A model generated the notes under the pieces. That model did not search any database, was not told where the DNA came from, and was given only the letters and a program-made list of their open reading frames with translations. A stretch of 64,000 bases of DNA from Bacillus sp. DTU_2020_1000418_1_SI_GHA_SEK_038. Lineage in GTDB: Bacteria > Bacillota > Bacilli > Bacillales > Cytobacillaceae. Every line of letters starts with the position of its first letter. Position 1 is the first letter of the stretch. Below, one piece after another: positions 7,619 to 51,269 of this stretch. The stretch covers positions 3,410,001 through 3,474,000 of the forward strand of contig NZ_CP135435.1 of assembly GCF_032341175.1 (NCBI RefSeq), written 5' to 3'. Made by a program: the position numbers and the translations under genes.

Positions 7619-7740
7619 GAAAAGCGGAAGCGCCTTGCCCACCCCCGACAAGCACAAGACGAGCCTCTCGGAAAGGTGTTCTTTACCTTTCTGGGAGGAT
7701 TGGCTTGTGACCTCGAGGGGGTAGGCGCTGCAGCTAGACA
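7619..7740 (+). repeat. Modular palindromic repeat, copy A (122 bp)
   Basis: Starts GAAAAGCGGA and ends CAGCTAGACA. Arms AGCGCCT and ACCCCC pair with GGGGGT and AGGCGCT; inside them CACAA pairs with TTGTG and the centre is the hairpin GAAAGGT/ACCTTTC. It fills the gap between the convergent ytsP and mgl genes and may act as a transcription stop for both. Related copies are at 17556, 23508, 45063, 50046 and 51043. Confidence 0.9.
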
Positions 7741-7783
7741 ATTCTCAAATTCGAGTAAAGTTAATCTCATCGCGTTTTTGCTC

Positions 7784-8977
7784 TTATACTACTTTTTCCA
7801 ACGCCAGTTCAAGGTCATCACGAATGTCTTGCCAAGATTCAAGGCCGACAGACAGTCTCAACAGCGTATCATCAATCCCCATTTTTTCGCGGGATTCTTT
7901 AGGTACAACTGCATGAGTCATTGTCGCCGGATGCTGAATTAATGTTTCTGAATCTCCTAGACTTACGGCGATTTTAATGAGCTTTAATGCATTCATAAAA
8001 TCTTGAGCTGTTTCCTTTTCTCCTTTCAAAGTAAAGGAAATCATTCCGCCTGGTCTTCTCATTTGCTTCTTTGCGATTTCAAATTCTGAATTATGTTTAT
8101 GTCCGGGAAAATATACTTTGTTTATCTTCGGATGTGAAAATAAGAAATCTGCTAGCTTCTCTGTATTATCACAATGGCGATCCATTCTGACTGCTAATGA
8201 CTTTAACCCCCTTAGTAACAGCCACGCATCAAAAGGAGAGATAATTCCGCCAATATCCTTTTGCGTTGTCAAGGCCACTTCCCCGATGAACTCCTTTGTC
8301 CCAATTACAAGGCCTGCAATCACATCTCCATGTCCACAAATATATTTAGTTGCACTGTGGATGACGACATCACATCCAAGATCAATTGGATTTTGTAAAT
8401 AGGGGGAACAGAACGTATTGTCTACAACAACCGGAATTCCTTTTTCTTTTCCAATCTCAGCAACCATTTGTAAATCTACAAGCTTCATTGTTGGATTAAT
8501 GGGTGTTTCCACATAAATACATACCGTTTCTGGAAGAATAGCTTCAAGCAGCTTCTCCCTTGTATCCATTGCAGAAAAGTCGTGACTGATTTTGTATTTA
8601 TTTTTCATCATCTGAAGCAGTCCAAATGTGCAGCCATACACACCTTGGGAGCATAAAATATGATCACCTGTTTTGGTCAATGCAAACAGAACAGCTGAAA
8701 CAGCAGCCATTCCAGAACCAAATGCAAGGGCAGCTTCGCCATTTTCTAATGCAGCTATTCTTTCTTCAAGCATTTTTACTGTCGGGTTCCCAAGTCTTGA
8801 ATAGACAAAGCCTTCTTCTTTTCCAGCAAAGCGCCTTTCCCCTTGCTGGGCTGTTTCAAATGCAAATGTTGATGTTTGGAAAATAGGCGGTGCCAGACTG
8901 CCGCAATATTTTTCTGCTTCATATCCTTCATGGATGACCTTTGTTTCAAAACTCACATCTTTTTTCTCTTTCATCAA
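7784..8977 (-). CDS. mgl: Methionine gamma-lyase (PLP-dependent)
   Basis: A 397-residue Cys/Met-metabolism PLP enzyme. HSATKY places the Schiff-base lysine at residue 211, and VYGCTFG gives Tyr114 and Cys116, the residue set and numbering of Pseudomonas putida methionine gamma-lyase; the cysteine sets this enzyme apart from cystathionine gamma-synthase and beta-lyase. It would split methionine to methanethiol, ammonia and 2-oxobutyrate. GAGGGGAG precedes the ATG. It appears monocistronic; a strong terminator of ytrP lies just upstream. A cystathionine gamma-lyase-type activity remains possible, since substrate range in this family is broad. Confidence 0.85.
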   Translation of the reverse strand: MMKEKKDVSFETKVIHEGYEAEKYCGSLAPPIFQTSTFAFETAQQGERRFAGKEEGFVYSRLGNPTVKMLEERIAALENGEAALAFGSGMAAVSAVLFALTKTGDHILCSQGVYGCTFGLLQMMKNKYKISHDFSAMDTREKLLEAILPETVCIYVETPINPTMKLVDLQMVAEIGKEKGIPVVVDNTFCSPYLQNPIDLGCDVVIHSATKYICGHGDVIAGLVIGTKEFIGEVALTTQKDIGGIISPFDAWLLLRGLKSLAVRMDRHCDNTEKLADFLFSHPKINKVYFPGHKHNSEFEIAKKQMRRPGGMISFTLKGEKETAQDFMNALKLIKIAVSLGDSETLIQHPATMTHAVVPKESREKMGIDDTLLRLSVGLESWQDIRDDLELALEKVV

Positions 8978-9076
8978 AATCTCCCCTCTTCAGTGAATGC
9001 TCTCATCATAAAATAAAAAAAGTTCTCTTTACAGGATATGCATAATATGAAGGTTTTGAATGCTTATTTAATTAGG

Positions 9077-9113
9077 AAAAAAAGACCTCGCCATTAGTAT
9101 GGCGAAGTCTTTT
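9077..9113 (-). terminator. Terminator of the GGDEF gene
   Basis: AAGACTTCGCCA and TGGCGAGGTCTT (minus strand) form a long stem followed by seven T. The stem overlaps the stop codon of the GAF-GGDEF gene. Confidence 0.85.
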
Positions 9114-10986
9114 CAATAACAATATCACTTTCTTGAACAATGACTTTATTTTTTCCTGTTTGCTTAGCAACATATAACGCTTTATCAGCACGTTTAAATA
9201 ATGAAGGATACGTATCCTCTTGTCCCCTGCTCCAATGTGATACTCCACATGAAATGGTCACCTTAGGGTTGGAACATTCATACACTCTTGCAACAAGCCT
9301 TTCAGCTATTACCACACCTGCAATTAAAGATACTCCTGGCAAATAAATAGCAAGTTCTTCCCCGCCCCATCTTGCACCTATATCAGTTCCCCTAATATTG
9401 GCATTTATCAGTCCTGCTACTTGAATGATAACCTCATCTCCAACCTGATGGCCATATGTATCATTGATGGTCTTAAAATTATCAATATCAATCATAATAA
9501 ACGTTCCTTCATGATCCTCGTTCATTGATTGATATATTTTTTCATCAAGGTAATTTCGGGAATAAAGCTTCGTTAAATGGTCTGTTACAACCATCTTTTC
9601 AAGTTCCTCTCTAAGCATTGAGTTTGTAATAGCAAGAGTAGAGTGGTGGATCAATGACTGCAGAAGCTTAAACGTTTCAAAAGAGAAATGATAAGACGGC
9701 TCACTCATAGCAAGTACAAACCCCTTAAGGACTCCGGATTGGGTCATAGGAACTGCCATTATTGATTTAAATTGCCTTATATCTGATTCTAATGGCAATT
9801 GAAAATCACCGATAAAAAGGGACTCAACCTCTTTATCAATTCTACCCTTTATATATTGAATATAGCTTTCTGCGCCAGTTGTCTGGAAGAAATCCGTACT
9901 GCCATTTAATACTTCTATTTGTTTTCCACCTTTAGTATATAAGATGAAACCAACTTCTTCTGCACCAAAAGAGTCCGAAATCTGCTCAGTCATATACGCC
10001 ATTGCTTCTGTTAATCTTAAATTAGAGTTCAAGCGATGAGAAGTTTCATTGATTAATTTAAGATCTGTTATTAGACGCTTTGATTGCTGGTAAAGCTGAG
10101 CATTTTCTAATGCGCTGCCAGCTGTATTTGCTAAAAGGGTAATAAACTCAATTTCACCATCTGGAAAAACAATGGTATTAGGTGCAATTACTTGCAATAC
10201 CCCATAAACGCCCTGTTTCCCTTTCAATGGTGCATATAAAACAGATTTTTTCATTTGAATGGAATCTTCAAATTGAATATTGCCTGTTACGTATGCCTGC
10301 ATAGCCGCAATATTTTCACTGTTGTAGTCTAAATCCTTTATAGGAAGGTCTTCAAGCATATGATTATCATGTGAAAGAAGGAGATAGTAAGTGAATGTTG
10401 GATAGACCTCCTGGAGCGTATGAATAATCTCACCGAGGACATCGTCCATATTCATTGTAGAATGAAATTTTTCTGTAACACGGAATAGCTGTTTATACCG
10501 TCTATCCTCAGATACTTTATTAATCAGTGATTGTACATTTTCAAGGAATTTTAAACTGTGATGACTTATTCCTTCGAGAACTTCATCAGAAAGAGAGATC
10601 ATCCCAGCTTCTTGCTCCTTCAAAGCCATAATTCCAATAAAGGAATTCTTTTTCTCCAAGACTAGCATTAAATCATATTCTTCAAATCCCGGCAAATTAC
10701 GATAAAACGATTTAAATTGACCAACCTTATTTATTATTTCATCCTTAGAAATATTTGGACACTTTACTTGTTCTATATTGCAAAGTGTTGAGGTCTCTAT
10801 GAGTAATTTCTTTTTACAATTATTAAAACTAAAAAAAGTAGCTTCCTTGGCATTTAATAAGGTTTTGATGGCGAAGAGCATATTTTTCAATACATCATCA
10901 TATACCAAAAAGCCATTTTCTGTATCTACGATATCAAAAAAATTACTTTTCAACTTCAATATTAATTCATGCTCATTATTAGCCAT
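9094..10986 (-). CDS. ytrP: GAF-GGDEF diguanylate cyclase
   Basis: A 630-residue cytoplasmic protein with an N-terminal region and two GAF-like sensor domains (roughly residues 170-310 and 320-465) followed by a GGDEF domain (about 475-620). The active-site loop is GARWGGEELAIYLPG, and RGTD sits five residues before it, which is an intact inhibitory c-di-GMP-binding I-site. Both features suggest a working diguanylate cyclase making c-di-GMP from GTP. The start at 10986 is preceded by AGGTGATG at ideal spacing; two earlier in-frame starts have weaker sites. It lies some 1.8 kb from a c-di-GMP riboswitch controlling an EAL protein. No signal peptide or membrane segment is seen. Confidence 0.88.
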   Translation of the reverse strand: MANNEHELILKLKSNFFDIVDTENGFLVYDDVLKNMLFAIKTLLNAKEATFFSFNNCKKKLLIETSTLCNIEQVKCPNISKDEIINKVGQFKSFYRNLPGFEEYDLMLVLEKKNSFIGIMALKEQEAGMISLSDEVLEGISHHSLKFLENVQSLINKVSEDRRYKQLFRVTEKFHSTMNMDDVLGEIIHTLQEVYPTFTYYLLLSHDNHMLEDLPIKDLDYNSENIAAMQAYVTGNIQFEDSIQMKKSVLYAPLKGKQGVYGVLQVIAPNTIVFPDGEIEFITLLANTAGSALENAQLYQQSKRLITDLKLINETSHRLNSNLRLTEAMAYMTEQISDSFGAEEVGFILYTKGGKQIEVLNGSTDFFQTTGAESYIQYIKGRIDKEVESLFIGDFQLPLESDIRQFKSIMAVPMTQSGVLKGFVLAMSEPSYHFSFETFKLLQSLIHHSTLAITNSMLREELEKMVVTDHLTKLYSRNYLDEKIYQSMNEDHEGTFIMIDIDNFKTINDTYGHQVGDEVIIQVAGLINANIRGTDIGARWGGEELAIYLPGVSLIAGVVIAERLVARVYECSNPKVTISCGVSHWSRGQEDTYPSLFKRADKALYVAKQTGKNKVIVQESDIVIEKTSPY

Positions 10987-11070
10987 ATACTCATCACCTA
11001 TTTTCATTCCCGTTTCCCATATACATCCATTATATATGTAAGCAGACAAAAGTTCTTAATTATTTTTTGA

Positions 11071-11676
11071 CTATTGCGTTTCAACTGCTCCAATACTTAT
11101 ACCCGTTTTTGTTAAAACTAACCATAATAAACCATCATTTGTTAAAGCATGAATTTCAATTGGGTTTCCTAAACGATTATCCCAATTAATAGACTGATTA
11201 TTATTAATTAGTATTTTTGAAGTATCACTATTATATACAAATGAAACCTTGTATTGGCTATGATTCCTCTTAAACTTATGGTCTCTATTCTCAGTTTTTA
11301 AACCTTTGGAAAAATAAGTCCACTTCCTGTCTATATGGGCCCAAATCCCATTTTCAAATCGATCGGAAAATAGTTGGTCAGGCGCATCGTTTAGCTTAAT
11401 CCTATGTAATGTTTTAAACTTATAGCGGTTGGTTCTTTCTATCTTATAAATAGCTAATATATGCTCATTATTTTTATTTTCATAGAGCGCAACAATCGGG
11501 GCATCGGTTTGGACTGAGCTTGTCTTTAGAACTAGTGCTATTGGATCCTGCACCATTGTTTCTAATGGCTGTTTATCATATCGCAGAAAAAACGCGTAAA
11601 CTATAACAAACATAAAAAAACCGATTAACATAAATCGGATAAACTTTTCTTTTTTCGTTTCATTCACTTGTATCAC
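11071..11676 (-). CDS. Unknown membrane-anchored protein
   Basis: A 201-residue protein I do not recognise. It has a short basic cytoplasmic head, one membrane segment (about residues 14-31, FMLIGFFMFVIVYAFFL), then a mostly beta-like domain predicted outside the cell, rich in charged and aromatic residues. It contains no cysteine pair or catalytic motif I can name. The start is GTG (ATA CAA follows); a second GTG nine bases later has similar support from AAGAGTG. It lies 84 bases upstream of the GGDEF gene on the same strand and could be co-transcribed with it. Confidence 0.7.
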   Translation of the reverse strand: MIQVNETKKEKFIRFMLIGFFMFVIVYAFFLRYDKQPLETMVQDPIALVLKTSSVQTDAPIVALYENKNNEHILAIYKIERTNRYKFKTLHRIKLNDAPDQLFSDRFENGIWAHIDRKWTYFSKGLKTENRDHKFKRNHSQYKVSFVYNSDTSKILINNNQSINWDNRLGNPIEIHALTNDGLLWLVLTKTGISIGAVETQ

Positions 11677-11775
11677 TCTTAAAACGTTTTCATTTTTACT
11701 TACTATATTATATCATATCTAAATGATGGAGTAAGTAAAAAATAAATGCTTTCATACCCGTTTCCGAAATACTCC

Positions 11776-11805
11776 TTGACTTTTCTTAATGAAAAATCAT
11801 ATAAT
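11776..11805 (+). promoter_or_regulatory. rpsD promoter
   Basis: TTGACT at 11776-11781 and a perfect TATAAT at 11800-11805 with an 18-base spacer, about 45 bases before the S4 leader hairpin. Confidence 0.8.
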
Positions 11806-11852
11806 ATTATTTGTGTAAAATATTGCAGCCTATGTGTACTGTTTTATGAAAT

Positions 11853-11947
11853 CATTTTGTTCCTCAATTAGCTTTTCGAAGCTTTTCTGAAGAAGGGGTA
11901 CTGCGTAACCCTTAGCTGCTAGGGCGAAGGTACATGAAAACAAAATG
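11853..11947 (+). ncRNA. Ribosomal protein S4 leader (autoregulatory RNA)
   Basis: The transcribed region before rpsD folds with a closing stem CATTTTGTT/AACAAAATG (11853-11861 with 11939-11947) enclosing an AGCTTTTCGAAGCT hairpin and a GGGGTA...TAACCC/CTAGGG core. The size, place and enclosed pseudoknot-like G/C blocks fit the Firmicutes S4 leader, where excess S4 binds its own mRNA and blocks translation. I identify it by context and overall shape, not by a covariance search. Confidence 0.7.
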
Positions 11948-12012
11948 ACCATAACTTATAGCACATCTGTTTTTATTTTACCAAAATAAAAACATTAAAG
12001 GAGGAGTCTTAA

Positions 12013-12615
12013 ATGGCTCGTTATACTGGTCCAAGCTGGAAATTATCTCGTCGTCTTGGAATCTCTCTAAGCGGTACAGGTAAAGAATTAGAAAAGCGTC
12101 CTTACGCTCCTGGACAACATGGTCCAAACCAACGCAAGAAATTATCTGAGTACGGTTTACAATTACAGGAGAAGCAAAAGCTTCGTCATATGTATGGCGT
12201 AACTGAGCGTCAATTCCGTAACTTATACGATAAAGCTGGTAAAATGGTTGGTAAACACGGTGAAAACTTCATGATTCTTTTAGAATCACGTCTTGATAAC
12301 GTTGTTTATCGTTTAGGCTTAGCGCGTACTCGCCGCCAAGCTCGCCAACTTGTTAACCATGGTCACTTCTTAGTTGATGGCAAGCGTGTTGATATTCCAT
12401 CTTACCGCGTTGCACCTGGTCAAACAATTAGCATTCGCGAAAAATCTCGCAATCTTGACATCATCAAAGAAGCTATCGAAGTGAACAATTTCGTTCCTGA
12501 TTTCGTAACTTTCGATGCTGACAAATTAGAAGGAACTTTCACTCGCTTACCAGAGCGTTCTGAACTTCCAGCTGAAATTAACGAATCTCTAATCGTTGAG
12601 TTCTACTCTCGTTAA
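12013..12615 (+). CDS. rpsD: 30S ribosomal protein S4
   Basis: A 200-residue primary rRNA-binding protein of the small subunit that nucleates 16S assembly. It begins [20 protein letters not shown] and carries the S4 RNA-binding domain around residues 92-155 ([20 protein letters not shown]). Length equals that of B. subtilis RpsD, and no zinc-cysteine knuckle is present, so this is the C- (zinc-free) form. AAAGGAGGAG precedes the ATG. Codon use is strongly biased, as expected of a highly expressed gene. It is monocistronic, with its own promoter, an autoregulatory leader and a terminator. Confidence 0.98.
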
Positions 12616-12623
12616 TTAACTTT

Positions 12624-12665
12624 AACCCTAGAGCGTTTTATAACGCCGCTAGGGTTTTTCTTTTT
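12624..12665 (+). terminator. rpsD terminator
   Basis: AACCCTAG...CTAGGGTT with inner AGCG/CGC pairing, then a long T-rich run. Confidence 0.85.
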
Positions 12666-12726
12666 TTGTTAAAAATTTGAATAAATGCATCAATTTGCAG
12701 TTATTGTATTATTTTGTTGAATTATG

Positions 12727-12755
12727 TTGAATTTTGTATTATTTTGTTCTATTAT
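12727..12755 (+). promoter_or_regulatory. Promoter of the c-di-GMP riboswitch operon, with direct repeat
   Basis: TTGAAT at 12727-12732, 17-base spacer, TATTAT at 12750-12755. A 15-base word, TTGTATTATTTTGTT, fills most of the spacer (12734-12748) and also occurs exactly 30 bases upstream (12704-12718), which suggests a DNA-binding site. Confidence 0.6.
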
Positions 12756-12785
12756 TATTTAAGTAAGTAAGAAGTCCTAATATGT

Positions 12786-12880
12786 AAAAGGCAAACTATT
12801 TGAAAGAATAGGACGCAAAGCCCTTGGGTCTAAGGTTTTAGGTAATAAAAAATACCTACTGCTATGATTGCCAGGTTACC
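12786..12880 (+). ncRNA. c-di-GMP-I riboswitch (GEMM-I)
   Basis: The order of conserved blocks is that of GEMM-I: GGCAAAC, a P2 stem CTATT/AATAG closed by TGAAAG with the GAAA tetraloop, GGACGCAAAGCC, GGGTCTAAGG, a variable P3 hairpin (TAGGTA/TACCTA), then ATGATTGCCAGGTTACC. It sits 25 bases after the promoter and is followed by an intrinsic terminator, so it should control transcription read-through into the EAL and chemoreceptor genes. Confidence 0.93.
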
Positions 12881-12910
12881 AAATTCTCGTTTATTTTCCA
12901 TGAAATTTTT

Positions 12911-12940
12911 GGCTATTCTATTTGGAATAGCCTTTTTTTA
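12911..12940 (+). terminator. Riboswitch-controlled terminator
   Basis: GGCTATTC/GAATAGCC with a 6-base loop and seven T. The bases AGAATAG in the riboswitch P2 stem (12805-12811) are complementary to CTATTCT of the terminator (12913-12919), which offers an antiterminator. Confidence 0.88.
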
Positions 12941-13015
12941 TTTTCTATCGGAAAAAGCTTATTACTTAGCGCTTTATTGTTTTGGCAAAAAAAATTAAAA
13001 GTGAGGTGAACTTTT

Positions 13016-13396
13016 ATGAATGTTGAAGATTTAATTGCTGATATCAATAAATATATGGAGCAATTAGACTTTGTCACTGCACGAAAACTTATTGAAGAAA
13101 ATCTAAATGTATTAGAAAAACATAGGATCTCACTGAAGAGCAATGCAAGAGAATTACTTAAATTCCTTATAGAAAGAAATCATTCAGGGTATCAGCCTAT
13201 ATCCAGACAAGACATGGCAACATTAATCGCCATTAATACATATGCAACTAATTTTGATATTAGAGGCTTAAAGCTAATTATTAAGGATAGAGCAAAATTG
13301 CTTTTGCGAACAGATATACTCGAATATTTAAACAAAGATGCAAAGGCTATATTAGATGGAATGGGTGTAATAAATACAGAATTACCTAATAAATAA
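13016..13396 (+). CDS. Unknown 126-residue protein under c-di-GMP riboswitch control
   Basis: A small, charged and predominantly helical protein without signal peptide or membrane segment. GTGAGGTGA lies just before the ATG. The N-terminal third (about residues 1-45) looks like paired amphipathic helices, and the middle has a basic NHSGYQPISRQDM stretch. I do not recognise the family. It is the first gene after the c-di-GMP-I riboswitch and its terminator, followed 72 bases later by an EAL gene, so it is likely part of a c-di-GMP response. Possibilities are a c-di-GMP effector or a partner of the EAL protein; the sequence shows no PilZ motif (RxxxR plus DxSxxG). Confidence 0.8.
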   Translation: MNVEDLIADINKYMEQLDFVTARKLIEENLNVLEKHRISLKSNARELLKFLIERNHSGYQPISRQDMATLIAINTYATNFDIRGLKLIIKDRAKLLLRTDILEYLNKDAKAILDGMGVINTELPNK

Positions 13397-13468
13397 GCTA
13401 ATATTGTGTAGGAAGAAGGGTGTAAAATAGATTTTCGGTCCATTACAACAATAACGCAAGAAAAATTA

Positions 13469-14140: not shown

Positions 14141-14166
14141 TAATGACAATTTAGCCTTATATAGTT

Positions 14167-15900: not shown

Positions 15901-15917
15901 AATATACAGAATTTAAT

Positions 15918-15961
15918 AAGCCCTAGAAATTATGCTTTTGTAATTTCTAGGGCTTTTATTA
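15918..15961. terminator. Bidirectional terminator chemoreceptor/tyrS
   Basis: AAGCCCTAGAAATTA pairs with TAATTTCTAGGGCTT, a 15-bp perfect stem, then TTTATT. It lies between convergent genes. Confidence 0.88.
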
Positions 15962-15988
15962 AATCTTTATTGCTGATGACTTAATGAA

Positions 15989-17266
<1,278 letters not shown>

Positions 17267-17290: not shown

Positions 17291-17530
17291 AAAAAAAAAC
17301 AAAAAACGCCCCTGCATAAACTGCAGGGACGCTTTAATTGCGCGGTACCACCCAAATTGAGGACAATTATCCTCCACTCATTTCTGATAACGGACCTCCC
17401 GTTCACTGCTATAACTGATAGCTCAGGTTGACAGTGAATGCTCAGGGAGGTAATTCATCCTTCTATGTGTACCGGCTCACAGCAGCCGCCGGCTTTCTGA
17501 AACAGAGATAGAAGCACTACTTATTCCCAT
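17291..17530 (-). ncRNA. Tyrosine T-box riboswitch
   Basis: On the minus strand the T-box sequence GGGTGGTACCGCG (17353-17341) is followed by terminator GCGTCCCTGCAG/CTGCAGGGGCG and a T run. Upstream is the stem I region with AGCCGGCGGCTGCTGTGAGCCGG and, further on, TGAATTACC, whose TAC (17452-17450) is placed as the specifier for tyrosine, matching the downstream tyrS. Confidence 0.93.
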
Positions 17531-17555
17531 CAAAGCAATAGCTAATTTATTTTAA

Positions 17556-17677
17556 TGTCTAGCTCCAGCGCCTACCCCCTCGAGGTCATAAGCCAGTCCG
17601 CCAAGAAGGTTAAACTACAACCTTCCCGTCGGCCCGTCTTATGCTTGTCGGGGGTGGGCAAGGCGCTTCCGCTTTTC
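17556..17677 (-). repeat. Modular palindromic repeat, copy B (122 bp)
   Basis: Read on the minus strand it starts GAAAAGCGGA and ends GGAGCTAGACA, near-identical in its outer arms to copy A (AGCGCCT, ACCCCC with GGGGGT, AGGCGCT). The inner stem has CATAA/TTATG where copy A has CACAA/TTGTG, and the central hairpin is GAAGGTT/AACCTTC. It lies between the tyrS promoter candidate and the T-box. Confidence 0.9.
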
Positions 17678-17693
17678 TATTAATATAATAGCA

Positions 17694-22760: not shown

Positions 22761-22872
22761 AATCTTTCACAAATTGTTTTCGAATAATACAGAAAATAAA
22801 ATCAAGTCGCTTAAAAATAACTAATTTTATGTATAATAGAATTAATAATGAATGTCAATAGGCGGTGAACAA

Positions 22873-23505
22873 ATGGAACATCGAAAAACATATAATGCTA
22901 AAGAATTAAAAACTCCGAAAGGCAGTTTAATTATTGAAGGACCTATTTCCCCTGAGAAATTAGCAGACTTAGAGTTTCATAAGGACTTAGTAGCTTTTCG
23001 GCCACCCGAGCAGCAAAAAAAGGCGCTTATTGAAATAGCGGGGCTTCCAGAAGGAAGAATTATTATTGCCAGGTACAGAGATACAATTGTCGGATATGTT
23101 ACATACGTATACCCTGATCCGCTCGAACGATGGTCAGAAGGGAAAATGGAAAATTTAATCGAACTTGGCGCTATCGAAGTAATCCCTGAGTTTAGAGGGA
23201 CTGGTACCGGTAAAAGCCTTTTAAAGGTGTCCATGATGGACGATGCAATGGAAGATTATATTATTATTACAACTGAATATTATTGGCATTGGGATTTAAA
23301 AGGCACAGGGTTAAATGTATGGGAGTATCGAAAGGTCATGGAGAAAATGATGAATGCAGGCGGACTGGAATGGTATGCAACAGATGACCCAGAAATCAGT
23401 TCTCATCCAGCTAACTGTTTAATGGCAAAAATCGGCAAAAGGGTCGACCTTGACTCTGTTCAGAAATTTGACCGCCTCCGGTTTATGAATCGTTTTATGT
23501 ATTAA
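22873..23505 (+). CDS. acuA: Protein lysine acetyltransferase AcuA
   Basis: A 210-residue GNAT-family enzyme, the same length as B. subtilis AcuA. It acetylates the active-site lysine of acetyl-CoA synthetase and turns it off. The GNAT core is EVIPEFRGTGTGKSLLKVS, the acetyl-CoA pyrophosphate loop. The start MEHRKTYNAKELKTPKG is chosen because GGCGGTG lies five bases before it; an ATG 21 bases earlier overlaps that site. First gene of acuABC, divergent from its target acsA. A palindromic repeat separates it from acuB. Confidence 0.95.
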   Translation: MEHRKTYNAKELKTPKGSLIIEGPISPEKLADLEFHKDLVAFRPPEQQKKALIEIAGLPEGRIIIARYRDTIVGYVTYVYPDPLERWSEGKMENLIELGAIEVIPEFRGTGTGKSLLKVSMMDDAMEDYIIITTEYYWHWDLKGTGLNVWEYRKVMEKMMNAGGLEWYATDDPEISSHPANCLMAKIGKRVDLDSVQKFDRLRFMNRFMY

Positions 23506-23507: not shown

Positions 23508-23690
23508 GAAAAGCGGAGAGTGCCTGCTTAAAAAGGGAACGCAGACTAAGAACGCCACGTCCTGTGGCAACGTCTGCATGACCCGCATCCTTCCGGCCTC
23601 AAGCATAAGACGAGCAGACAAGAAGGTTGCACTTTACCTTCTTGACTGTTTGGCTTATGACCTCGAGCCGATGGCACTCGGAGCTAGACA
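23508..23690 (+). repeat. Modular palindromic repeat, copy C (183 bp) inside the acu operon
   Basis: Starts GAAAAGCGGA two bases after the acuA stop and ends GGAGCTAGACA 21 bases before the acuB start. Outer arms are AGTGCC/GGCACT, differing from copies A and B but still complementary. It carries an extra hairpin module (23538-23597): GCAGAC...GTCTGC enclosing GCCACGTCCTGTGGC. The inner stem CATAAG/CTTATG and centre AAGAAGGT/ACCTTCTT are as in the other copies. Confidence 0.9.
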
Positions 23691-29226: not shown

Positions 29227-29333
29227 ACGTCTAGCTTCTGCAGTTGTTTGTTAAACATCTGTAAAAAAATAGCTACTTGACATTGCGGCATTCCTCAGTC
29301 TGTCGTATGATAAGATACATAATTATCGCAGAT

Positions 29334-29527
29334 TAACGGGCTGTAAGATTCCAGCCCAAGAAATTATTGAAATAAAAAATTTTAAAGTGTGAGATCTAAC
29401 AGCCCGTAAAGGCCCGATAATAGGAACATAGACTAAGAAAGCCACGTCCTGTGGCAACGTCTATGTGACCCACATCCTGTGGGCCGCAACTAACATTCAG
29501 TGGGGAAGAAGAACCCCCACTGAATGT
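29334..29527. repeat. Hairpin-rich region upstream of ccpA with a copy of the palindromic module
   Basis: Four inverted repeats in a row: ACGGGCTGT/ACAGCCCGT (29336-29344 with 29399-29407); CATAGAC/GTCTATG enclosing GCCACGTCCTGTGGC (about 29428-29465), the same module as in repeat copies C, F and G; CCCACATCCTGTGGG; and ACATTCAGTGGGG/CCCCACTGAATGT (about 29493-29527). This fills most of the 457-base gap. Sequence at 29228-29241 (GTCTAGCTTCTGCA) looks like a decayed repeat end. Confidence 0.75.
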
Positions 29528-29643
29528 AGTTTCACTAATGATTGTGTAGCAACTCACAAACATAGTGGTGAGTAGGTTATGATTGCTTGTTGTAAACTAG
29601 TAATTAATAAGTAACTTTGCCAATTTTTTAAGGAGTGATATAG

Positions 29644-30660: not shown

Positions 30661-30675
30661 AGAAAAGCGGAAGCT
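30661..30675 (+). repeat. Fragment of the palindromic repeat (left end only)
   Basis: AGAAAAGCGGAAGCT matches the conserved left end of copies A and B; no right end follows. It sits between the sigma-D-like promoter and motP. Confidence 0.55.
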
Positions 30676-42244: not shown

Positions 42245-42281
42245 CTCCTTTTTTCTATTCCTCTAGCTTTCCTATCACATA

Positions 42282-42310: not shown

Positions 42311-42361
42311 TAGGTAATATTTTAATTTTTCGTACATTTACCAACGAGTGAGGTGGACATT

Positions 42362-44440: not shown

Positions 44441-44493
44441 AAAAGCTAAGCATTCTGCAAGGTTTCCCCTTGAAAGAGTGCCTAGCTTTTTTA
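44438..44493 (+). terminator. Chemoreceptor terminator
   Basis: AAAAAGCTAAGCA pairs imperfectly with GTGCCTAGCTTTTTT around an A/T-rich loop. Confidence 0.75.
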
Positions 44494-44532
44494 CCTTAGA
44501 AGGATAATAACACTGAGGGTATTAACCTTTTT

Positions 44533-45042: not shown

Positions 45043-45062
45043 ACTTTCTTCCTCCTTGCTAG

Positions 45063-45132
45063 GAAAGTGCAAGCGCCTCGGTCACCCCCGACAAGCACGT
45101 CCTGTACGTCTGGGGTAGGCGCTGAAGCTAGA
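45063..45132 (+). repeat. Modular palindromic repeat, short copy E (70 bp)
   Basis: Outer arms AGCGCCT, ACCCC with GGGGT, AGGCGCT are conserved. The large centre is missing and replaced by a CACGTCCTGTACGTC loop of the second module type. Right end GAAGCTAGA. It lies 21 bases before the lipoprotein start. Confidence 0.85.
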
Positions 45133-45315
45133 TTTAGGAAAAACTATCATTCTTTTCTATCATACATTTCCTTGCAATCATCTGGCAACCCTAATACTTT
45201 GAATTAAAGGAAACTAATTGGATTTAATGGTAAAATATATCATAGAGGTTCATGGTGGGGGTTTTTAACTAAATGATCATCGAACACTCAATAACATTTT
45301 TAAGGAGGAATTTAC

Positions 45316-45762
45316 ATGGAATTAACAGTATACTTAGCAGGGGAAATTCACTCAAACTGGCGGGAAGAGCTAAAAGATGCTGCGAGGTCTCATAAACTTC
45401 CCCTTCATTTCGTTGGTCCGATGGAGAATCACGACAGATCTGATTATATAGGGGAAGAAATACTCGGCAAACAGCCTAATGCTATATTCCGCGATGAAGC
45501 AGCTTCAAGAATTAATAATTTAAGAACACAATTACTAATGCAAAAATCTGATCTTGTTATTGCCCTTTTTGGAGAGAAATATAAACAGTGGAATACAGCC
45601 ATGGATGCAAGTGCTGCCGTTGCTTTAAACAAGCCCCTTATCATCATCCGCCCCGATGAGCTACATCATCCCTTAAAGGAGCTTTCCAACAAAGCCAATG
45701 TTACTGTTGCAACAGTTAGTCAAGCTCTTAAAGTTCTAGCATATATTTTTGATGAAAAGTAG
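45316..45762 (+). CDS. ytoQ: YtoQ family protein (deoxyribosyltransferase-like)
   Basis: A 148-residue soluble protein: MELTVYLAGEIHSNWREEL, VGPMENHDRSD and SDLVIALFGEKYKQWNTAMD follow the pattern of the nucleoside 2-deoxyribosyltransferase-like fold. The family role is unknown. AAGGAGGAA precedes the ATG. It is convergent with the inosine/xanthosine triphosphatase gene, 38 bases away. No hairpin with a clear T run was seen between them apart from AAGGGGCTG/CAGCCCCTT (about 45774-45802). Confidence 0.9.
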   Translation: MELTVYLAGEIHSNWREELKDAARSHKLPLHFVGPMENHDRSDYIGEEILGKQPNAIFRDEAASRINNLRTQLLMQKSDLVIALFGEKYKQWNTAMDASAAVALNKPLIIIRPDELHHPLKELSNKANVTVATVSQALKVLAYIFDEK

Positions 45763-45800
45763 GATGTTTAGAAGGGGCTGCTAAAGCAAAGGTCAGCCCC

Positions 45801-46304
45801 TTATTTTTTCCTATATTCATACTGGCCAGCTAGAAGCTTTACAACATGTCTAAACATTTCAGTTCGGCTGATTTTTCCGTTTGTAAATATTCCCACAGCT
45901 CCTTCTTTTTTGCGTACATCTTCCTTTTCAGTAAAGCTCTCCATAACCGGACCCAATTCTTCCCCTTCAAGCAATCTATCCGCAATCGCTTTAGGCAGTG
46001 GTATGCGCGCACCTCCAGCAATAATCGGGGACTTGTCCTTTTCCGCAAGTGCTCCCCAATTGCATAAAAATAACCCATATTCCGTTTCTTGAACTCCACC
46101 CTCAAGCCCAATACCAATATCCCCGTTTCCTGCTTCTAATGCACTATACGCTCTATTGATTGCCCCTCTAATTGTTTCTTCATCTGAGAAAGGCTGATCA
46201 CTCACACCAGACGGAACATTTACCGAAATAACTTGATCATGTTGAAAAACGGATTGGACTGCTGATACCTTTACTGGATTATTCGAACCAATAACTATTT
46301 TCAT
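45801..46304 (-). CDS. Inosine/xanthosine triphosphatase (DUF84, YjjX-like)
   Basis: A 167-residue NTPase that likely removes ITP and XTP from the nucleotide pool. MKIVIGSNNPVKVSAV is the substrate-binding start; DQPFSDEETIRGAINRA and GIGLEGGVQE are family signatures. AAAGGAG precedes the ATG. It lies downstream of ytoP on the same strand but behind a terminator, so it may have its own promoter. Confidence 0.88.
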   Translation of the reverse strand: MKIVIGSNNPVKVSAVQSVFQHDQVISVNVPSGVSDQPFSDEETIRGAINRAYSALEAGNGDIGIGLEGGVQETEYGLFLCNWGALAEKDKSPIIAGGARIPLPKAIADRLLEGEELGPVMESFTEKEDVRKKEGAVGIFTNGKISRTEMFRHVVKLLAGQYEYRKK

Positions 46305-46329
46305 GACTTTAACTCCTTTAAGTTGAATG

Positions 46330-46362
46330 AAAAAGAGACACCAACTAGGCTGTCTCTTTTTT
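46330..46362 (-). terminator. ytoP terminator
   Basis: AAAAAGAGACA/TGTCTCTTTTT with a 10-base loop. Confidence 0.85.
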
Positions 46363-46364
46363 AT

Positions 46365-47438
46365 TTACGAATTTTGACGAATAGATTCAACCGTTGTGCG
46401 GTCACAGGATTTAACAAGCTTAATCAGCAATTCTTTTGCAGCTGCATAATCATCCACATGAACTATGGAACCATGAGTATGAATATAGCGTGAGCAAATA
46501 CCAATAACTGCACTTGGCACCCCTTCATTGGAAAGGTGAACACTGCCGGCATCTGTCCCGCCTTGGGAAATAAAATATTGGTAAGGAATATTGTTTGACT
46601 CTGCTGTGTCTAGGATAAACTCTCGCATTCCACGATGAGTAACCATCGAACGGTCGTAGATGCGCAGAAGCGTTCCTTTTCCTAACTGGCCGAACTCATT
46701 TTTATTTCCTGACATATCATTTGCCGGACTTGCATCCAATGCGAAGAAAATATCTGGTTTAATCATATTTGCTGCTGTTCTCGCACCGCGAAGGCCAACT
46801 TCTTCTTGAACCGTAGCACCTGAATATAATGTATTAGGCAGCTTTTCATCCTTAACTGCTTCAAGAAGTTCTACTGCCAAGCCACAGCCATAGCGATTAT
46901 CCCATGCTTTTGCAAGGATTTTCTTTTCATTCGCCATTGGAGTAAATGGACAGATTGGAACGATTTGCTGACCAGGCTTAATTCCGATTTTCTTGGCATC
47001 TTCTCGGTCATCCGCACCAATATCAATTAACATGTTTGTGATTTCCATCGGCTTACTGCGCTTAGCCTCATCTAATAGATGTGGTGGAATGGATCCAATG
47101 ACTCCAATCACAGGACCATTATCAGTTATAACCTGAACTCTTTGAGCCAATAGAACTTGACTCCACCAGCCTCCTAATGTCTGAAAACGCAGCATGCCAT
47201 TATCCGTAATGGAGGTAACCATAAAGCCTACCTCATCCATATGACCCGCAACCATTACTGTTGGGCCATTTTCGTCTCCTTTTTTCACCCCAAAAATACT
47301 TCCAAGCTTATCCTGTACAACTTCATCTGCATATTGGCCAAGCTGTTCCCGCATAAATTGGCGAACTAAATGTTCATTTCCAGGTGCTCCTGGAAGCTCA
47401 GTTAATGTTTTAAAAAGTTGCAGCGTTTTTTCGTTCAT
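46365..47438 (-). CDS. ytoP: M42 family aminopeptidase YtoP
   Basis: A 357-residue metal-dependent aminopeptidase of the glutamyl/deblocking type. Metal ligands appear in [39 protein letters not shown] and the C-terminal YIHTHGSI. It should trim short peptides in the cytoplasm. GGAGCAATC precedes the ATG. It is the only gene between the two terminators and is likely monocistronic. Confidence 0.93.
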
Positions 47439-47603
47439 GAGATTGCTCCTTTATTTATTTCCTTATATTTTATGTATGCTTCTATTATTTTACAGAACTT
47501 TTCGATTGCTTACCACTAATTCAGTTTTTGTCCAAGCTATTTCTTTGATAAGATAGTACAGAGATACAATTTGTTACGTTATTTTACAATTGGGGGGATG
47601 CTT

Positions 47604-47918
47604 ATGAACTGGAAATCATTTTTATTAGGTGTTGGGGTTGGCTTAGCAGGCGGGTATGCCGCAAGAGAACTGCTTAGTCAAAAAACAGTCGTTTCACCTG
47701 AAAGAGCATTGTCAAATGCAAAGACTGCATTTAAGAATGAGGGGCCCGTTAGCGGATCTTGGATTCATATGCAAACGGAGCCGTATCAAAAAGATCATCT
47801 TAAGTATGATGTATATCGGGGCGGGATATCCAGATATACGGGCGAAGAGACAGAACAATATGAGTTTATTGCTGACGCCAAAACAGGAACGATTCTTGAC
47901 GCGTATAGGCTCGCATAG
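47604..47918 (+). CDS. ytzB: Small secreted or membrane-anchored protein YtzB
   Basis: A 104-residue protein with an uncleaved-looking N-terminal hydrophobic segment (MNWKSFLLGVGVGLAGGYAA) and a PepSY-like remainder (FKNEGPVSGSWIHM, YEFIADAKTGTILD). Function unknown. GGGGGG lies six bases before the ATG at 47604; an earlier ATG inside this site is less likely. Confidence 0.88.
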   Translation: MNWKSFLLGVGVGLAGGYAARELLSQKTVVSPERALSNAKTAFKNEGPVSGSWIHMQTEPYQKDHLKYDVYRGGISRYTGEETEQYEFIADAKTGTILDAYRLA

Positions 47919-47944
47919 ATTTAGTATGGTATTAATAAAAATTT

Positions 47945-47985
47945 GCACCTCTCTTAATAAAAATTAGAGGTGCAGCTTTCTTATT
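47945..47985. terminator. Terminator ytzB/ytnP
   Basis: GCACCTCT/AGAGGTGC with a 13-base loop; T-rich on both sides, between convergent genes. Confidence 0.7.
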
Positions 47986-48826
47986 TTTTACGAATTCTAT
48001 CCAGTTTATTTATTAATTTGCCGTCTTTATCCCATTTGACTGCTCGATAATAAGCATCATGGTAAAAAGTAAACCAGGCGTTGTTTTCCAAGCCAAAATG
48101 GATCCATTTATCTTTTGCCCAAATCGAATTCATTGGATAGTCATCATAGGCTAACACCCATAAGACGTTTTGGTGTGCATGGGTTGGCATAATGTCTCCC
48201 ATATGGATGAGAAAATCATCTCCATCTTCAATAATAATAATTGAGTGCCCATCACTATGTCCTCCTGTATGAACCATTTGGATAGAGCCCAATGACCATT
48301 CCTTATCAAAAGTAGTGACCTGATCTTGAATAGGCTCCCAATTTTCCTTCCAATATGTATTACGAGAACGAATATTTGGGTTTCTCATTTCATCCCATTC
48401 TGTTTTCGAAACAATGATTTTGGCATTTGGAAAAACCGAGTTGTACGTTTCGTTGTTCGGACTAGTAAGGCCACATGCATGATCAAAATGCAGATGGGTC
48501 ATTAGGACATAATCTATTTCTAAAGGTTTAATATTTAGTTCTGCTAATTCCTTCACTACTTGTGATTCCTCAAGTGCGCCAAAATTACGTCTTTGTTTTT
48601 CCGTTAATTTCCCATTTCCTAATCCAGAATCCACTAAAATATTTTTTCCTTCTGCCTGGATCAAAATAGGATCTGTACGGAGTTCAATTTGATTTTTTTC
48701 ATTACAAGGATATTTTTTAGACCACAGCGGCTTTGGAACGACTCCAAACATCGCTCCTCCGTCTAGGAAATTTACTCCGCCACGCAGCCATGTCAGCTTT
48801 GTATTTTGCAATTGCAATGTTTCCAT
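47981..48826 (-). CDS. ytnP: YtnP, metallo-beta-lactamase-fold lactonase
   Basis: A 281-residue metallo-beta-lactamase-fold hydrolase. [12 protein letters not shown] is the HxHxDH metal motif; [18 protein letters not shown] and the late FYHDAYYRA give the remaining ligands. B. subtilis YtnP is described as a quorum-quenching lactonase acting on N-acyl homoserine lactones, so lactone hydrolysis is the best guess here. No signal peptide. AGGAGGGG precedes the ATG. Confidence 0.9.
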
Positions 48827-48903
48827 GAATTCCCCTCCTGTATTGCATTTATTTTACCATTTGTGTTTTATTAGTAGAAATATTTCGAATCTTGATCTCA
48901 AAG

Positions 48904-48934
48904 AAAAAAGCTTACCAAGTGATAAGCTTTTTTA
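48904..48934 (-). terminator. trmB terminator
   Basis: AAAAAAGCTTA/TAAGCTTTTTT with an 8-base loop, overlapping the trmB stop codon. Confidence 0.85.
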
Positions 48935-49570
48935 ACGATACTGGACTTCACATCGATAGATGCGATTTCCTTTTTTTGAAAATTTCTCTTCATATTCTGT
49001 CATAATATTGCCTTCAACCCCACTATTATGAAGATCTAAGCTTATATTCTTAAGAAGCAGTCCATATTCAGAAAAACTCATTAACGAGAATTCAAACAAT
49101 CCTTGATTATCAGTTTTAAAATGAATTTCGCCATTTTTCACAAGAATTTCCTCGTAATTTTTTAAGAACGTTTTATAGGTTAATCTTCTTTTCGCATGGC
49201 GAGTTTTCGGCCAAGGATCTGAGAAATTCAAATACACTCTATCCACTTCTCCCGCCTCAAAAAACTCCCGAAGGTCGGCTGCATTAACATTCATCAGCTT
49301 TACATTAGGCAACTCTTCTTCAATAATTTTATCAAGCGCCGTCACAATGACACTATCCTGCAATTCAATCCCAATATAATTAATATTCGGGTTCGCCTTA
49401 GCCATTCCTGTAATAAAGCGACCTTTTCCTGTACCGATTTCTATATGAAGAGGCTGAATATTATCGAATACATCCTGCCATTTACCTTTATTTTGTTCAG
49501 GGGCAGCCATGACATATTGAGGGTATTGTTCAAGTTTTTCCTTTGCCCACGGTTTATTTCTTTGTCTCAT
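48932..49570 (-). CDS. trmB: tRNA (guanine-N7-)-methyltransferase
   Basis: A 212-residue SAM-dependent enzyme methylating G46 of t[23 protein letters not shown] is the SAM motif; [20 protein letters not shown] is the family catalytic signature. The ATG at 49570 (MRQRNKPWA) follows GGAGTG; the frame is open upstream without a site. Length as in B. subtilis TrmB. Confidence 0.95.
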
Positions 49571-49683
49571 AATAGACACTCCTATTAAATAATATCGTTC
49601 AAACCATAACATGCATTTATTGAGCTTTGCAACAATTACATGCGGATGCTCGGCAACTAGAATATTAGACCATGCATAAATAA

Positions 49684-49725
49684 AAAAGGGAATTCACAAC
49701 CTAACAGTGAATTCCTTTGATTTTT
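49684..49725. terminator. Hairpin between trmB and ytzH
   Basis: GGAATTCAC/GTGAATTCC with a 10-base loop. The minus-strand T run (CCCTTTTTTATTT) is the stronger side, yet trmB itself starts further along on that strand, so this may stop antisense transcription or act as an attenuator for ytzH. Confidence 0.5.
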
Positions 49726-49758
49726 ATCCGCTGCTAATCTTTACAGGGAGGGTTCACG

Positions 49759-50037
49759 ATGCCGATCAGCCATCAAGATAAATTAACTTTATTGAAAGAT
49801 ATATTAAACAATCATCAAATGGATTGCTGTGGAACCGTTTCTGAATGTGAACAATTAAAAAGGCTTGTTAAATCAATCATGGTGCAGCCAGGTCTTGATC
49901 AACATACACAATCGATATTGGAAGAAATTTATTATTACAGTCAGCACGGAAGTCAGTCGGCTCAATTAGACAATCATATTGAAGCCCATCAATCTGAGCT
50001 CTCACAATGGGTGAATGAGATTAATCAATTCTCGTAG
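49759..50037 (+). CDS. ytzH: YtzH-like small protein
   Basis: A 92-residue soluble helical protein: YtzH family, function unknown. It contains the conserved CCGTVSECEQLKRL, with three cysteines in its first third, and a Q/H-rich C-terminus. AGGGAGGG precedes the ATG. A palindromic repeat begins nine bases after its stop. Confidence 0.88.
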   Translation: MPISHQDKLTLLKDILNNHQMDCCGTVSECEQLKRLVKSIMVQPGLDQHTQSILEEIYYYSQHGSQSAQLDNHIEAHQSELSQWVNEINQFS

Positions 50038-50045
50038 TCTTTACC

Positions 50046-50224
50046 GAAATGCGGAAGTGCCTTGATCAGAGGCGACAAGCATAAGGCGGGCTGGCGAGAA
50101 GGTTGTACTTTAACCTTCTTGTCAGACTGACTTATGACCTCCGACGTACAGGATGTACTAGTGCCGACTTTGCCACAGGACGTGGCGTCTTAGTCGGCGA
50201 GCCTCTAGGCGCTGGAGCTAGACA
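50046..50224 (+). repeat. Modular palindromic repeat, copy F (179 bp), overlapping the ytmP 3' end
   Basis: Left end GAAATGCGGA, right end GGAGCTAGACA. Outer arms AGTGCCT/AGGCGCT (one G-T pair) and GAGGC/GCCTC where copies A and B have ACCCCC/GGGGGT. The centre AGAAGGTT/AACCTTCT is standard. The second module is inverted and on the right side (about 50162-50199): TGCCGAC/GTCGGCA around GCCACGTCCTGTGGC on the minus strand, next to GTACATCCTGTAC. The right end covers the last codons of ytmP. Confidence 0.9.
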
Positions 50225-50996
50225 GAATTCCGTTTAGAAATTGGAGCCATTTCTCCATCTCCTGTAACCGGAGTTTGTTTTTATGCCATTGAATGAATGT
50301 GAGAGTTTGCGCAATGGCATACCATTTCATTCTTAAAAGTAATTCATCCGTCAGAGTTCGACCATATCGGCTGACCCAGTCTGACCATTCTTTCTTAGGG
50401 ATATACCAGTAAAGCAGCATGCCTAGATCGATCGCTGGATCCGCAATCATTGCCCCATCCCAATCAATTAAATACAGCTGGTTGCTTTCTGCAAGCAGCC
50501 AGTTGTTATGATTGACATCGCAATGGCAAACCGTTTTCTCATCACATTGTATATTCAATAATTCTTTCCTGAGAAACTCCAAGGAGTCTTTAACTGTTTG
50601 ATTCTGTCTAAGCTCCCCATCTATTTGCTCTTCAATCATGCGCAATAGCATATTTGGATAAAGCGGTGATTTGCCCAATCTTTTTAACATCCCAAGCAAA
50701 GGTTTTGAACTATGGATTTTTTTGAGCAGCTTTGCTACTCGTTCATTATTCATCTCTGCCTGTTTGAGCTCTCTTCCATTTAACCATTGCTGAGCGGTAA
50801 TAACATCGCCGGTTTCAAGCCTTTTCGTCCAAACAAGCTTAGGAACGATTCCCTCGGCTGATAATACTGCGAGAAAGGGAGATGAATTCCTTTTCAGGAA
50901 CAATCTTTGCTCCTCATGCTTGGCAAAAAAAGCCTTCCCCGTTGCACCCCCAGCAGGGACGATCTCCCATTCTTGTCCAAATAATTCTTCCAACAT
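50205..50996 (-). CDS. ytmP: Aminoglycoside/choline-kinase-like phosphotransferase YtmP
   Basis: A 263-residue APH/ChoK-fold kinase. VCHCDVNHNNWLL is the catalytic loop (HxDxxxxN) and LIDWDGA the metal-binding aspartate. The substrate is unknown; the fold phosphorylates small hydroxyl compounds. AGGTGA precedes the ATG. The last residues (LSSSSA and the TAG stop) are encoded within the end of palindromic repeat copy F, so the native C-terminus has probably been replaced or trimmed. Confidence 0.9.
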   Translation of the reverse strand: MLEELFGQEWEIVPAGGATGKAFFAKHEEQRLFLKRNSSPFLAVLSAEGIVPKLVWTKRLETGDVITAQQWLNGRELKQAEMNNERVAKLLKKIHSSKPLLGMLKRLGKSPLYPNMLLRMIEEQIDGELRQNQTVKDSLEFLRKELLNIQCDEKTVCHCDVNHNNWLLAESNQLYLIDWDGAMIADPAIDLGMLLYWYIPKKEWSDWVSRYGRTLTDELLLRMKWYAIAQTLTFIQWHKNKLRLQEMEKWLQFLNGILSSSSA

Positions 50997-51042
50997 TGTT
51001 CACCTGCAATTTAGTAAGCCATTTATGCAAATAGCTGTTATA

Positions 51043-51227
51043 GAAAAGCGTAGGCGGCTTGCCAAAGGAACATCGATTAAAAACCGCCACGTCCTGTGGC
51101 GAACATCGATGTCAGCACATCCTGTGCAAGTCCGACAAGCATAAGACAGGCTAGTGAGAAGGTTGTTCTTTAACCTTCTTGCTAGACTGGCTTATGACCT
51201 CGAGGGGCTAGCCGCCGAAGCTAGACA
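51043..51227 (+). repeat. Modular palindromic repeat, copy G (185 bp)
   Basis: Left end GAAAAGCGTA, right end GAAGCTAGACA. Outer arms GGCGGCT/AGCCGCC, again different from the other copies yet complementary. Second module present (about 51069-51128): ACATCGAT/ATCGATGT around GCCACGTCCTGTGGC, then GCACATCCTGTGC. Inner CATAAG/CTTATG and AGAAGGTT/AACCTTCT as elsewhere. It lies 46 bases upstream of ytmP, in its probable leader. Confidence 0.9.
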
Positions 51228-51230
51228 ATA

Positions 51231-51269
51231 GAAAAGCGTAAGCGGCTCTTAAACCACTGAAGCTAGACA
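51231..51269 (+). repeat. Minimal copy of the palindromic repeat (both ends, no centre)
   Basis: GAAAAGCGTAAGCGG joined directly to CCACTGAAGCTAGACA, three bases after copy G. It shows that the two ends define the element. The bases to 51330 hold a further weak AGCCT/AGGCT remnant; the rest of the gap up to the amyX terminator shows nothing else. Confidence 0.75.

What the first reader, a model, noticed from the sequence alone, without database searches (positions are those of the whole stretch)
7619..51269. Family of modular palindromic repeats with covarying arms
At least six copies (7619-7740, 17556-17677, 23508-23690, 45063-45132, 50046-50224, 51043-51227) plus a minimal copy (51231-51269) and a left-end fragment (30661). 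The ends are conserved (GAAAAGCGGA and GAGCTAGACA). The outer arms differ between copies but stay complementary: AGCGCC/GGCGCT, AGTGCC/GGCACT, GGCGGC/GCCGCC. The next block is ACCCCC/GGGGGT in some and GAGGC/GCCTC in another. The inner stem is CACAA/TTGTG or CATAA/TTATG. Paired changes on both arms mean the fold, not the sequence, is kept, as in a structured RNA or a hairpin-mobilised element. I cannot name this family.
Basis: seen in the sequence. Interest (0 to 1): 0.8.

Follow-up and report, generated by a model that had tools for sequence, protein, structure and literature searches.

The report
Mobile nested-hairpin repeats at terminators
The window holds copies of a small, gene-less, hairpin-shaped DNA repeat that appears to move around the genomes of Bacillus relatives, keeps its fold while its letters change, and tends to sit beside the stop signals of genes in one orientation relative to DNA replication.

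Summary
In detail: six copies and a minimal copy are present and their arms covary; the "fragment" at 30661 is not established. A covariance model gives 106 matches (E<=0.1, second-strand matches included) in the 4.47-Mb genome, and matches in 38 of 41 genomes (own plus relatives, Cytobacillus-like). In an in-house R-scape-like test on 120 copies, 8 of 7021 column pairs are significant, all 8 in the predicted fold. Changes to G·T outnumber changes to A·C 73 to 13, so one strand (5'-GAAAAGCGG…AGCTAGACA-3') is kept foldable. A relative about 89% identical shows filled and empty sites and internal deletions. Copies often lie at the A-rich foot of terminator hairpins; orientation follows replication in three genomes (61/78, 55/69, 53/70). 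The inserts in three window copies are Rfam Bacillaceae-1 RNA; 17 of its 25 matches here touch these elements. Y1 transposase and reverse transcriptase are each missing from element-rich genomes. Best reading: a non-autonomous mobile folded-strand element, working like Yersinia YPAL repeats, moved by an unidentified factor. The core is not in Rfam.

The parts
7619..7762 (+). Copy 1: core 7619-7740 plus conserved 3' tail to about 7762
   Evidence: core and tail both absent from the syntenic site of G041
17556..17677 (-). Copy 2: plain core, no insert; also present at the same site in G041
23508..23690 (+). Copy 3, between a GNAT-domain gene and a CBS-domain gene (acuA/acuB-like, names recalled); G041 keeps only an internally deleted form of about 36 nt
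23530..23596 (+). Bacillaceae-1 RNA module (RF01690, 69.1 bits) inside copy 3
45066..45133 (+). Copy 4, reduced; empty site in G041, flanked by TAGGAAA direct repeats
50046..50224 (+). Copy 5; absent from G041
50145..50209 (-). Bacillaceae-1 RNA module (56.7 bits) in the 3' arm of copy 5, antisense to the element
51043..51227 (+). Copy 6, first unit of a two-unit array; whole array absent from G041
51061..51128 (+). Bacillaceae-1 RNA module (69.3 bits) inside copy 6
51231..51269 (+). Copy 7, minimal unit, second in the array, 3 nt after copy 6
51044..51052 (+). Left direct repeat AAAAGCGTA of the array
   Evidence: the empty site in G041 has one copy
51270..51278 (+). Right direct repeat AAAAGCGTA of the array

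Best explanation
A non-autonomous mobile element of Bacillaceae and related families, about 122 bp in its plain form, made of one long nested hairpin with fixed ends and room for extra hairpin modules (including Bacillaceae-1 RNA). Shown: it is repeated, its presence differs between close relatives at otherwise syntenic sites, its fold is kept on one strand, it often lies next to terminator-like hairpins, it forms head-to-tail arrays with a few nt between units, and its orientation follows replication. Inferred: a factor supplied in trans recognises the folded strand (RNA or single-stranded DNA) and places a copy at a GAAAAG-type A-rich foot of a hairpin, probably at a replication fork. Because the element itself begins with GAAAAGC plus a hairpin, it is its own good target, which gives arrays. 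Internal deletions then make the minimal forms.
For: Filled/empty sites against G041. 8 of 8 significant covarying pairs lie in the fold. WC->G·T 73 versus WC->A·C 13 branch changes, p 2.7e-11; in unpaired columns the matching transitions are 69 versus 76, not corrected for composition. GAAA within 12 nt of the 3' end in 44 of 92 tail-less copies, versus 5, 9, 8 and 6 of 92 in four control windows. Hairpins below -6 kcal just downstream in 51% of 59 and 54% of 57 copies, versus 15% and 32% upstream. Anti-leading orientation 61 of 78, 55 of 69, 53 of 70, and 17 of 17 in convergent gene pairs. The minus strand of copies 1 and 2 ends in a terminator-like stem plus CTTTTC.
Against: No mobilising enzyme found. 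Target duplications are clear only at array junctions (16 of 30 full 3-nt matches versus 3.3 by shuffling). At solitary sites they are weak (3 of 13 full, p 0.09; letters p 0.036); 48 other tail-less copies show no excess (95 of 240 letters versus 91.7) and 64 tail copies none that is clear. Some filled sites have no clean repeat, and some differences may be losses. The folded strand lies on the leading-strand template, the opposite of what I recall for IS200/IS605 top strands. In 17 copies from other families the G·T excess is smaller (29 versus 18 without two G·T-rich rungs).
Confidence: 0.6

Rival explanations
1. Host-beneficial structured RNAs or 3'-end (terminator or mRNA-stability) elements, kept in place by selection and only copied by ordinary duplication.
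For: Strand-specific fold conservation; position next to terminator-like hairpins; minus strand terminator-like; Bacillaceae-1 is listed as a likely RNA in PMC2864571 (table row seen).
Against: Many sites are not shared between species about 89% alike; the gene to the right is antisense to the element in 48 of 74 cases ('--' 31, '+-' 17), so the folded plus strand would often not be in the mRNA; tandem arrays and variable modules suggest selfish spread.
Confidence: 0.17
2. A Y1/RAYT (REP-type or IS200/IS605-type) element moved as single-stranded DNA by a hairpin-binding Y1 transposase.
For: Palindrome, fixed unpaired ends, replication-linked orientation, insertion next to hairpins.
Against: No Y1 match in own genome; none in 10 of 25 genus genomes, among them G001, G005, G006, G010, G011, G014 and G020 with 69-85 element matches each; no GTAG/CGTC tag at the ends; tandem direct repeats.
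Confidence: 0.08
3. A retroposed RNA (bacterial SINE-like): the plus-strand RNA is copied into terminator sites using a nascent 3' end in the T-tract as primer.
For: Strand-specific RNA-like wobble pattern; short direct repeats of varying length; orientation expected for priming by the nascent leading strand (inference); own genome has 5 RVT_1 matches.
Against: 8 of 25 genus genomes have no RVT_1 match, including G017, which has four equal-scoring (142.1 bits) copies, and G001, G010, G011, G014, G020 with 69-85 matches.
Confidence: 0.06
4. DDE-type MITE with a lost or distant autonomous partner, using target duplications of about 8-9 bp.
For: NNNGAAAA(G) direct repeats at array junctions and at some empty-site pairs.
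Against: No terminal inverted repeat at the very ends; the tips (GAAAAGCGGA and AGCTAGACA) pair over only 3 bp outside the arms; no clear duplications in tail copies. DDE transposase families were not searched.
Confidence: 0.09

Closest known systems
YPAL / RU-2 of Yersinia
   Same: 168-bp palindromic repeat with internal inverted repeats, target duplications of 3-26 bp, targets spanning or next to dyad symmetry, filled and empty sites (passages of PMC2229807).
   Different: Different hosts and length; no sequence comparison was made. Nested modules, self-targeted arrays and replication-linked orientation were tested here only; I did not look for them in YPAL.
Bacillaceae-1 RNA (RF01690)
   Same: Module inside the 23508, 50046 and 51043 copies above Rfam's gathering score.
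   Different: It is a 67-nt module only. The core has no Rfam match above threshold, and 8 of 25 Bacillaceae-1 matches in the genome lie away from core matches.
REP / BIME elements with RAYT
   Same: Palindromic, high copy, arrayed.
   Different: Larger, no tag at the ends, no Y1 gene in this and nine other genus genomes.
bcr1 and other MITEs of Bacillus
   Same: Chromosomal non-coding repeats with mobile character (listing and passages only).
   Different: Not compared by sequence here; bcr1 is called specific to the B. cereus group in the title of its paper (reference lists).
Bhal-1 of B. halodurans (PMC2267715)
   Same: Stem-loop repeat family of 74 bp with 36 copies in a Bacillaceae member (table row); it may be this element or Bacillaceae-1.
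   Different: Sequence not seen, so identity untested. Bhal-2 of the same table is noted there as containing CRISPR repeats.

Membership tests
Bacillaceae-1 RNA (RF01690) | Match above gathering score over the whole model | tested here: met
   56.7, 69.1 and 69.3 bits (gathering 35), model 1-67, for the three modules only
Bacillaceae-1 RNA (RF01690) | Core element itself matches the model | tested here: not met
   no RF01690 match at 7619, 17556 or 45066 up to E=1
REP/RAYT or IS200/IS605 derivative | Y1 transposase in the genome | tested here: not met
   0 matches in own genome; absent from 10 of 25 genus genomes
REP/RAYT | GTAG or CGTC tag at one end of the palindrome | tested here: not met
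   ends read as versions of GAAAAGCGGA and AGCTAGACA; CGTC occurs in module loops, not at the ends
MITE | Terminal inverted repeats | tested here: not met
   arms pair from the AGCGCC block inwards plus 3 pairs (AGC/GCT) near the tips
MITE | Target-site duplication | tested here: inconclusive
YPAL-like repeats | Insertion at or next to dyad symmetry | tested here: met
   about half of the copies, versus 15-32% upstream
YPAL-like repeats | Variable-length target duplications | tested here: inconclusive
   none to about 16 nt, the longest at a tandem site
Mobile element in general | Filled and empty sites between close relatives | tested here: met
   gain and loss cannot always be told apart
Mobile element in general | Dedicated mobilising enzyme | tested here: inconclusive
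   Y1 and RVT_1 searched: neither is present throughout; other families not searched

The most novel reading that the evidence does not exclude
A Bacillales-wide mobile element that moves as a folded single strand (RNA or ssDNA) into terminator hairpins at replication forks, with neither a Y1 transposase nor a reverse transcriptase, using a conserved but unknown host factor; Bacillaceae-1 RNA would then largely be a passenger or sub-module of it.
Probability: 0.25. Interest if true: 0.85.

Novelty: new variant of a known kind. Interest (0 to 1): 0.6.

Why it matters
It would give a probable nature to repeats that occupy dozens of sites in most of the 25 genus genomes searched, recast a catalogued 'RNA' as often part of a mobile element, and provide a system in which strand-specific fold conservation and replication-linked insertion can be measured directly. 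The missing mobilising factor is a clear, testable gap.

Tried and rejected
Considered and set aside: chance (E-values to 2e-40; the sequences the model was built from match by construction); purely DNA-level arm correction by template switching (would not give a G·T over A·C excess); Y1 and RT as required movers; plasmid or phage carriage (no match of the 7619 copy in 72,556 plasmid and 50,697 phage records; no exact match of one 19-mer in viral contigs; the 51043 copy gave one weak partial hit, 51% covered, at the start of a 690-kb Cytobacillus spongiae record; no positive control was run).

Led nowhere: wrong strand coordinates; inserts misaligned, replaced; direct-repeat test on tail copies (419 versus 411.8 +- 4.9 and 350 versus 346.6 +- 4.7; an earlier 5-nt test gave 86 versus 79.4 +- 3.1, p 0.023); literature by sequence words (0 papers). 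Searches listed nothing that by title or abstract opening describes this repeat; one further paper search was unused.

Rows dropped: of 106 model matches (150 of 1339 candidates were scored) I used 80 places, dropping 24 second-strand matches of used sites and the two places 28697 and 1559546. Six of the 80 had no usable gene call on both sides (74 used). In one search, 12 of 189 candidates were dropped by a head filter. Copies were picked by patterns on both ends, so conservation of the ends is partly by selection. One search used 120 distinct of 125 plain-length copies out of 177. One search left out copies with another copy close by (116 of 177 used). One search collapsed tandem units; for G001 and G019 it used the rows printed, whose list was cut (101 and 86 matches existed).

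Full report
What is there. The window is G000:C1:3410001-3474000 of a 4.47-Mb chromosome. Of 517 relatives of the protein at 22852-23505 in named genomes, the best 80 were kept; the best is from Bacillus sp. FJAT-29937 (98%), followed mostly by Cytobacillus and unclassified Bacillus. That genome is here called G041. Each starts with a version of GAAAAGCGGA and ends with a version of AGCTAGACA. Inside lie an outer arm, a CCCCC/GGGGG-type block, the words CGACAAGC and TGACCTCGAG in most copies, and a long inner stem. Energies are far below those of shuffles.

How common. A covariance model built from 12 copies gives 106 matches at E<=0.1 in the genome, 24 of them the second strand of a palindrome already counted (150 of 1339 candidates scored). 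It matches in 38 of 41 genomes, own included, with at most 87 candidates scored per genome, and in 37 of 299 genomes of the class, with 12 scored per genome. In 17 plain-length copies from other families the inner arms differ while the ends and often the fixed words recur; since copies were picked by their ends, the ends are conserved partly by selection.

Is the fold kept? In an in-house test modelled on R-scape (G statistic with APC; 60 null alignments made by moving the inferred changes along a FastTree tree), 8 of 7021 column pairs reach E<0.05 and all 8 lie in the 35-pair consensus fold. The fold was predicted from the same alignment; the statistic does not use it. On 40 helix rungs, changes from a Watson-Crick pair to G·T number 73 and to A·C 13 (p 2.7e-11). 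In unpaired columns the transitions that would produce these are 69 and 76, not corrected for composition. The excess is present in own copies (24 versus 4) and genus copies (71 versus 4), and weaker in other families (29 versus 18) and in 6 copies from the named loci and G041-45 (3 versus 1), each without the two rungs where G·T is commonest. So the strand written GAAAAGCGG…AGCTAGACA is the one kept foldable. Whether as RNA or ssDNA is not decided.

Modules. The inserts at 23530-23596, 51061-51128 and (antisense, 3' arm) 50145-50209 are Bacillaceae-1 RNA. Of 25 matches of that family in the genome (19 over the cut-off), 17 (13 of the 19) lie within 60 nt of a core match, 15 in the same and 2 in the opposite orientation. 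PMC2864571 lists Bacillaceae-1 as a likely RNA without cis-regulation (one table row seen). A second module (GGAACAATCA…TTGTTCCTGCGATG) recurs too. A different 210-bp insert at 29326-29535 also holds Bacillaceae-1 and is missing from G041 and G044.

Movement. Over 196 kb aligned with G041 in 50 blocks, several sites are filled in one genome and empty in the other. Examples: window 45066-45133 (TAGGAAA on both sides, once in the empty site); the 51043 array (AAAAGCGTA on both sides, once in the empty site); own 3340501 (inserted before a terminator-like hairpin); and, filled only in G041, 196655-196779, 180297-180553 and 243913-244026. Other sites show internal deletion: G041 keeps about 36 nt of the 23508 copy, and own keeps a cut-down form of a copy intact in G041 (233701-233776). 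Gain and loss cannot always be told apart. At G041 236162-236331 the 'empty' site in own is itself a relic head, so tandem loss is possible. Copies 50046 and 7619 have no clean repeat, and at 7619 one arm of the relative's terminator is missing. G043 has a copy of another subtype with tail at the 7619 site, and G044 one at the 23508 site.

Target. In 92 tail-less copies not preceded by another copy, GAAA lies within 12 nt of the 3' end in 44, versus 5, 9, 8 and 6 of 92 in four control windows. In the 43 with room for it, the 3 nt before match the 5' flank in 86 of 129 letters (shuffled 58.5 +- 4.6). Split up, this comes from array junctions (64 of 90 versus 41.7) and is weak at solitary sites (22 of 39 versus 17.1, p 0.036). 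The other 48 tail-less copies show no excess at fixed offset (95 of 240 versus 91.7), though an earlier, smaller set gave longer shared words than shuffles (118 versus 102.5 +- 5.4, n 34). Copies with the tail (64 of 177) show none that is clear. Downstream 45-nt windows fold better than shuffles in both classes (p 7e-6 and 4e-5; hairpins below -6 kcal in 51% of 59 and 54% of 57). Upstream windows do so less (15% and 32%; p 0.89 and 0.015). The element's own minus strand reads stem plus CTTTTC, a terminator-like end, in copies 1 and 2. An element that starts with GAAAAGC plus stem is thus like its own target, which fits the arrays.

Orientation. With the origin near coordinate 0 and the terminus taken at 2.23 Mb (G000) or half-way (G001, G019), the folded strand has the polarity opposite to the leading strand in 61 of 78 places here, 55 of 69 in G001 and 53 of 70 in G019 (p 6e-7, 7e-7, 2e-5). 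GC skew supports this broadly but is noisy at single points; in G001 the change of sign comes before the half-way point. Gene orientation explains part: between co-directional genes the count is 33 to 15, between divergent genes 6 to 3. In convergent pairs, where it should not matter, 17 of 17 follow the rule (crude ORF-based gene calls). No used place in G000 lies between 1,941,111 and 2,604,481, around the terminus.

What moves it. Y1 transposase: none in own genome, absent from 10 of 25 genus genomes. RVT_1: absent from 8 of 25. G001, G010, G011, G014 and G020 lack both and have 69-85 matches. Neither is therefore required for presence; past activity cannot be excluded. DDE transposases were not searched.

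Comparison. The nearest in behaviour is YPAL/RU-2 of Yersinia: palindromic, internal inverted repeats, duplications of 3-26 bp, targets at or next to dyad symmetry (passages of PMC2229807). Four 15-17-letter words of the element occur in no paper of the open-access library. Bhal-1 of B. halodurans (PMC2267715, table row) might be the same thing; its sequence was not seen. I therefore call it a new variant of a known kind, with the mover unknown.

Noticed in passing
29326-29535: A separate 210-bp insert with hairpins at both ends and a Bacillaceae-1 module (29417-29483), missing from the same site in G041 and G044: perhaps another mobile repeat family sharing the module.
   Followed up: partly
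L231 12187-12269 (own 3342187-3342269); G041:C15:67938-68066 (L222/L223): Other species-specific short repeat inserts, such as tandem GCCGATATATCCGGAA-like units in own and TATCGTGCA-containing units in G041.
   Followed up: no
G000:C1:1941111-2604481: No used element place in about 660 kb around the terminus, though 80 are spread over the rest of the chromosome.
   Followed up: partly
12780-12883 and 17322-17542: A c-di-GMP-I riboswitch (70 bits) and a T-box leader (145 bits, minus strand); copy 2 lies 13 nt upstream of the T-box.
   Followed up: no
L060, L061, L104, L113, L119: Some copies end in AGCGTTCCTTGTGGAGCTAGAC or a close version, as if the GGAACAATC…TTCCTGCGATG module also sat inverted on the 3' side.
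   Followed up: no
50205-50996: Gene of the APH phosphotransferase family (Pfam PF01636) whose 3' end overlaps the end of copy 5 by 20 nt, so the insertion may supply the last codons.
   Followed up: no
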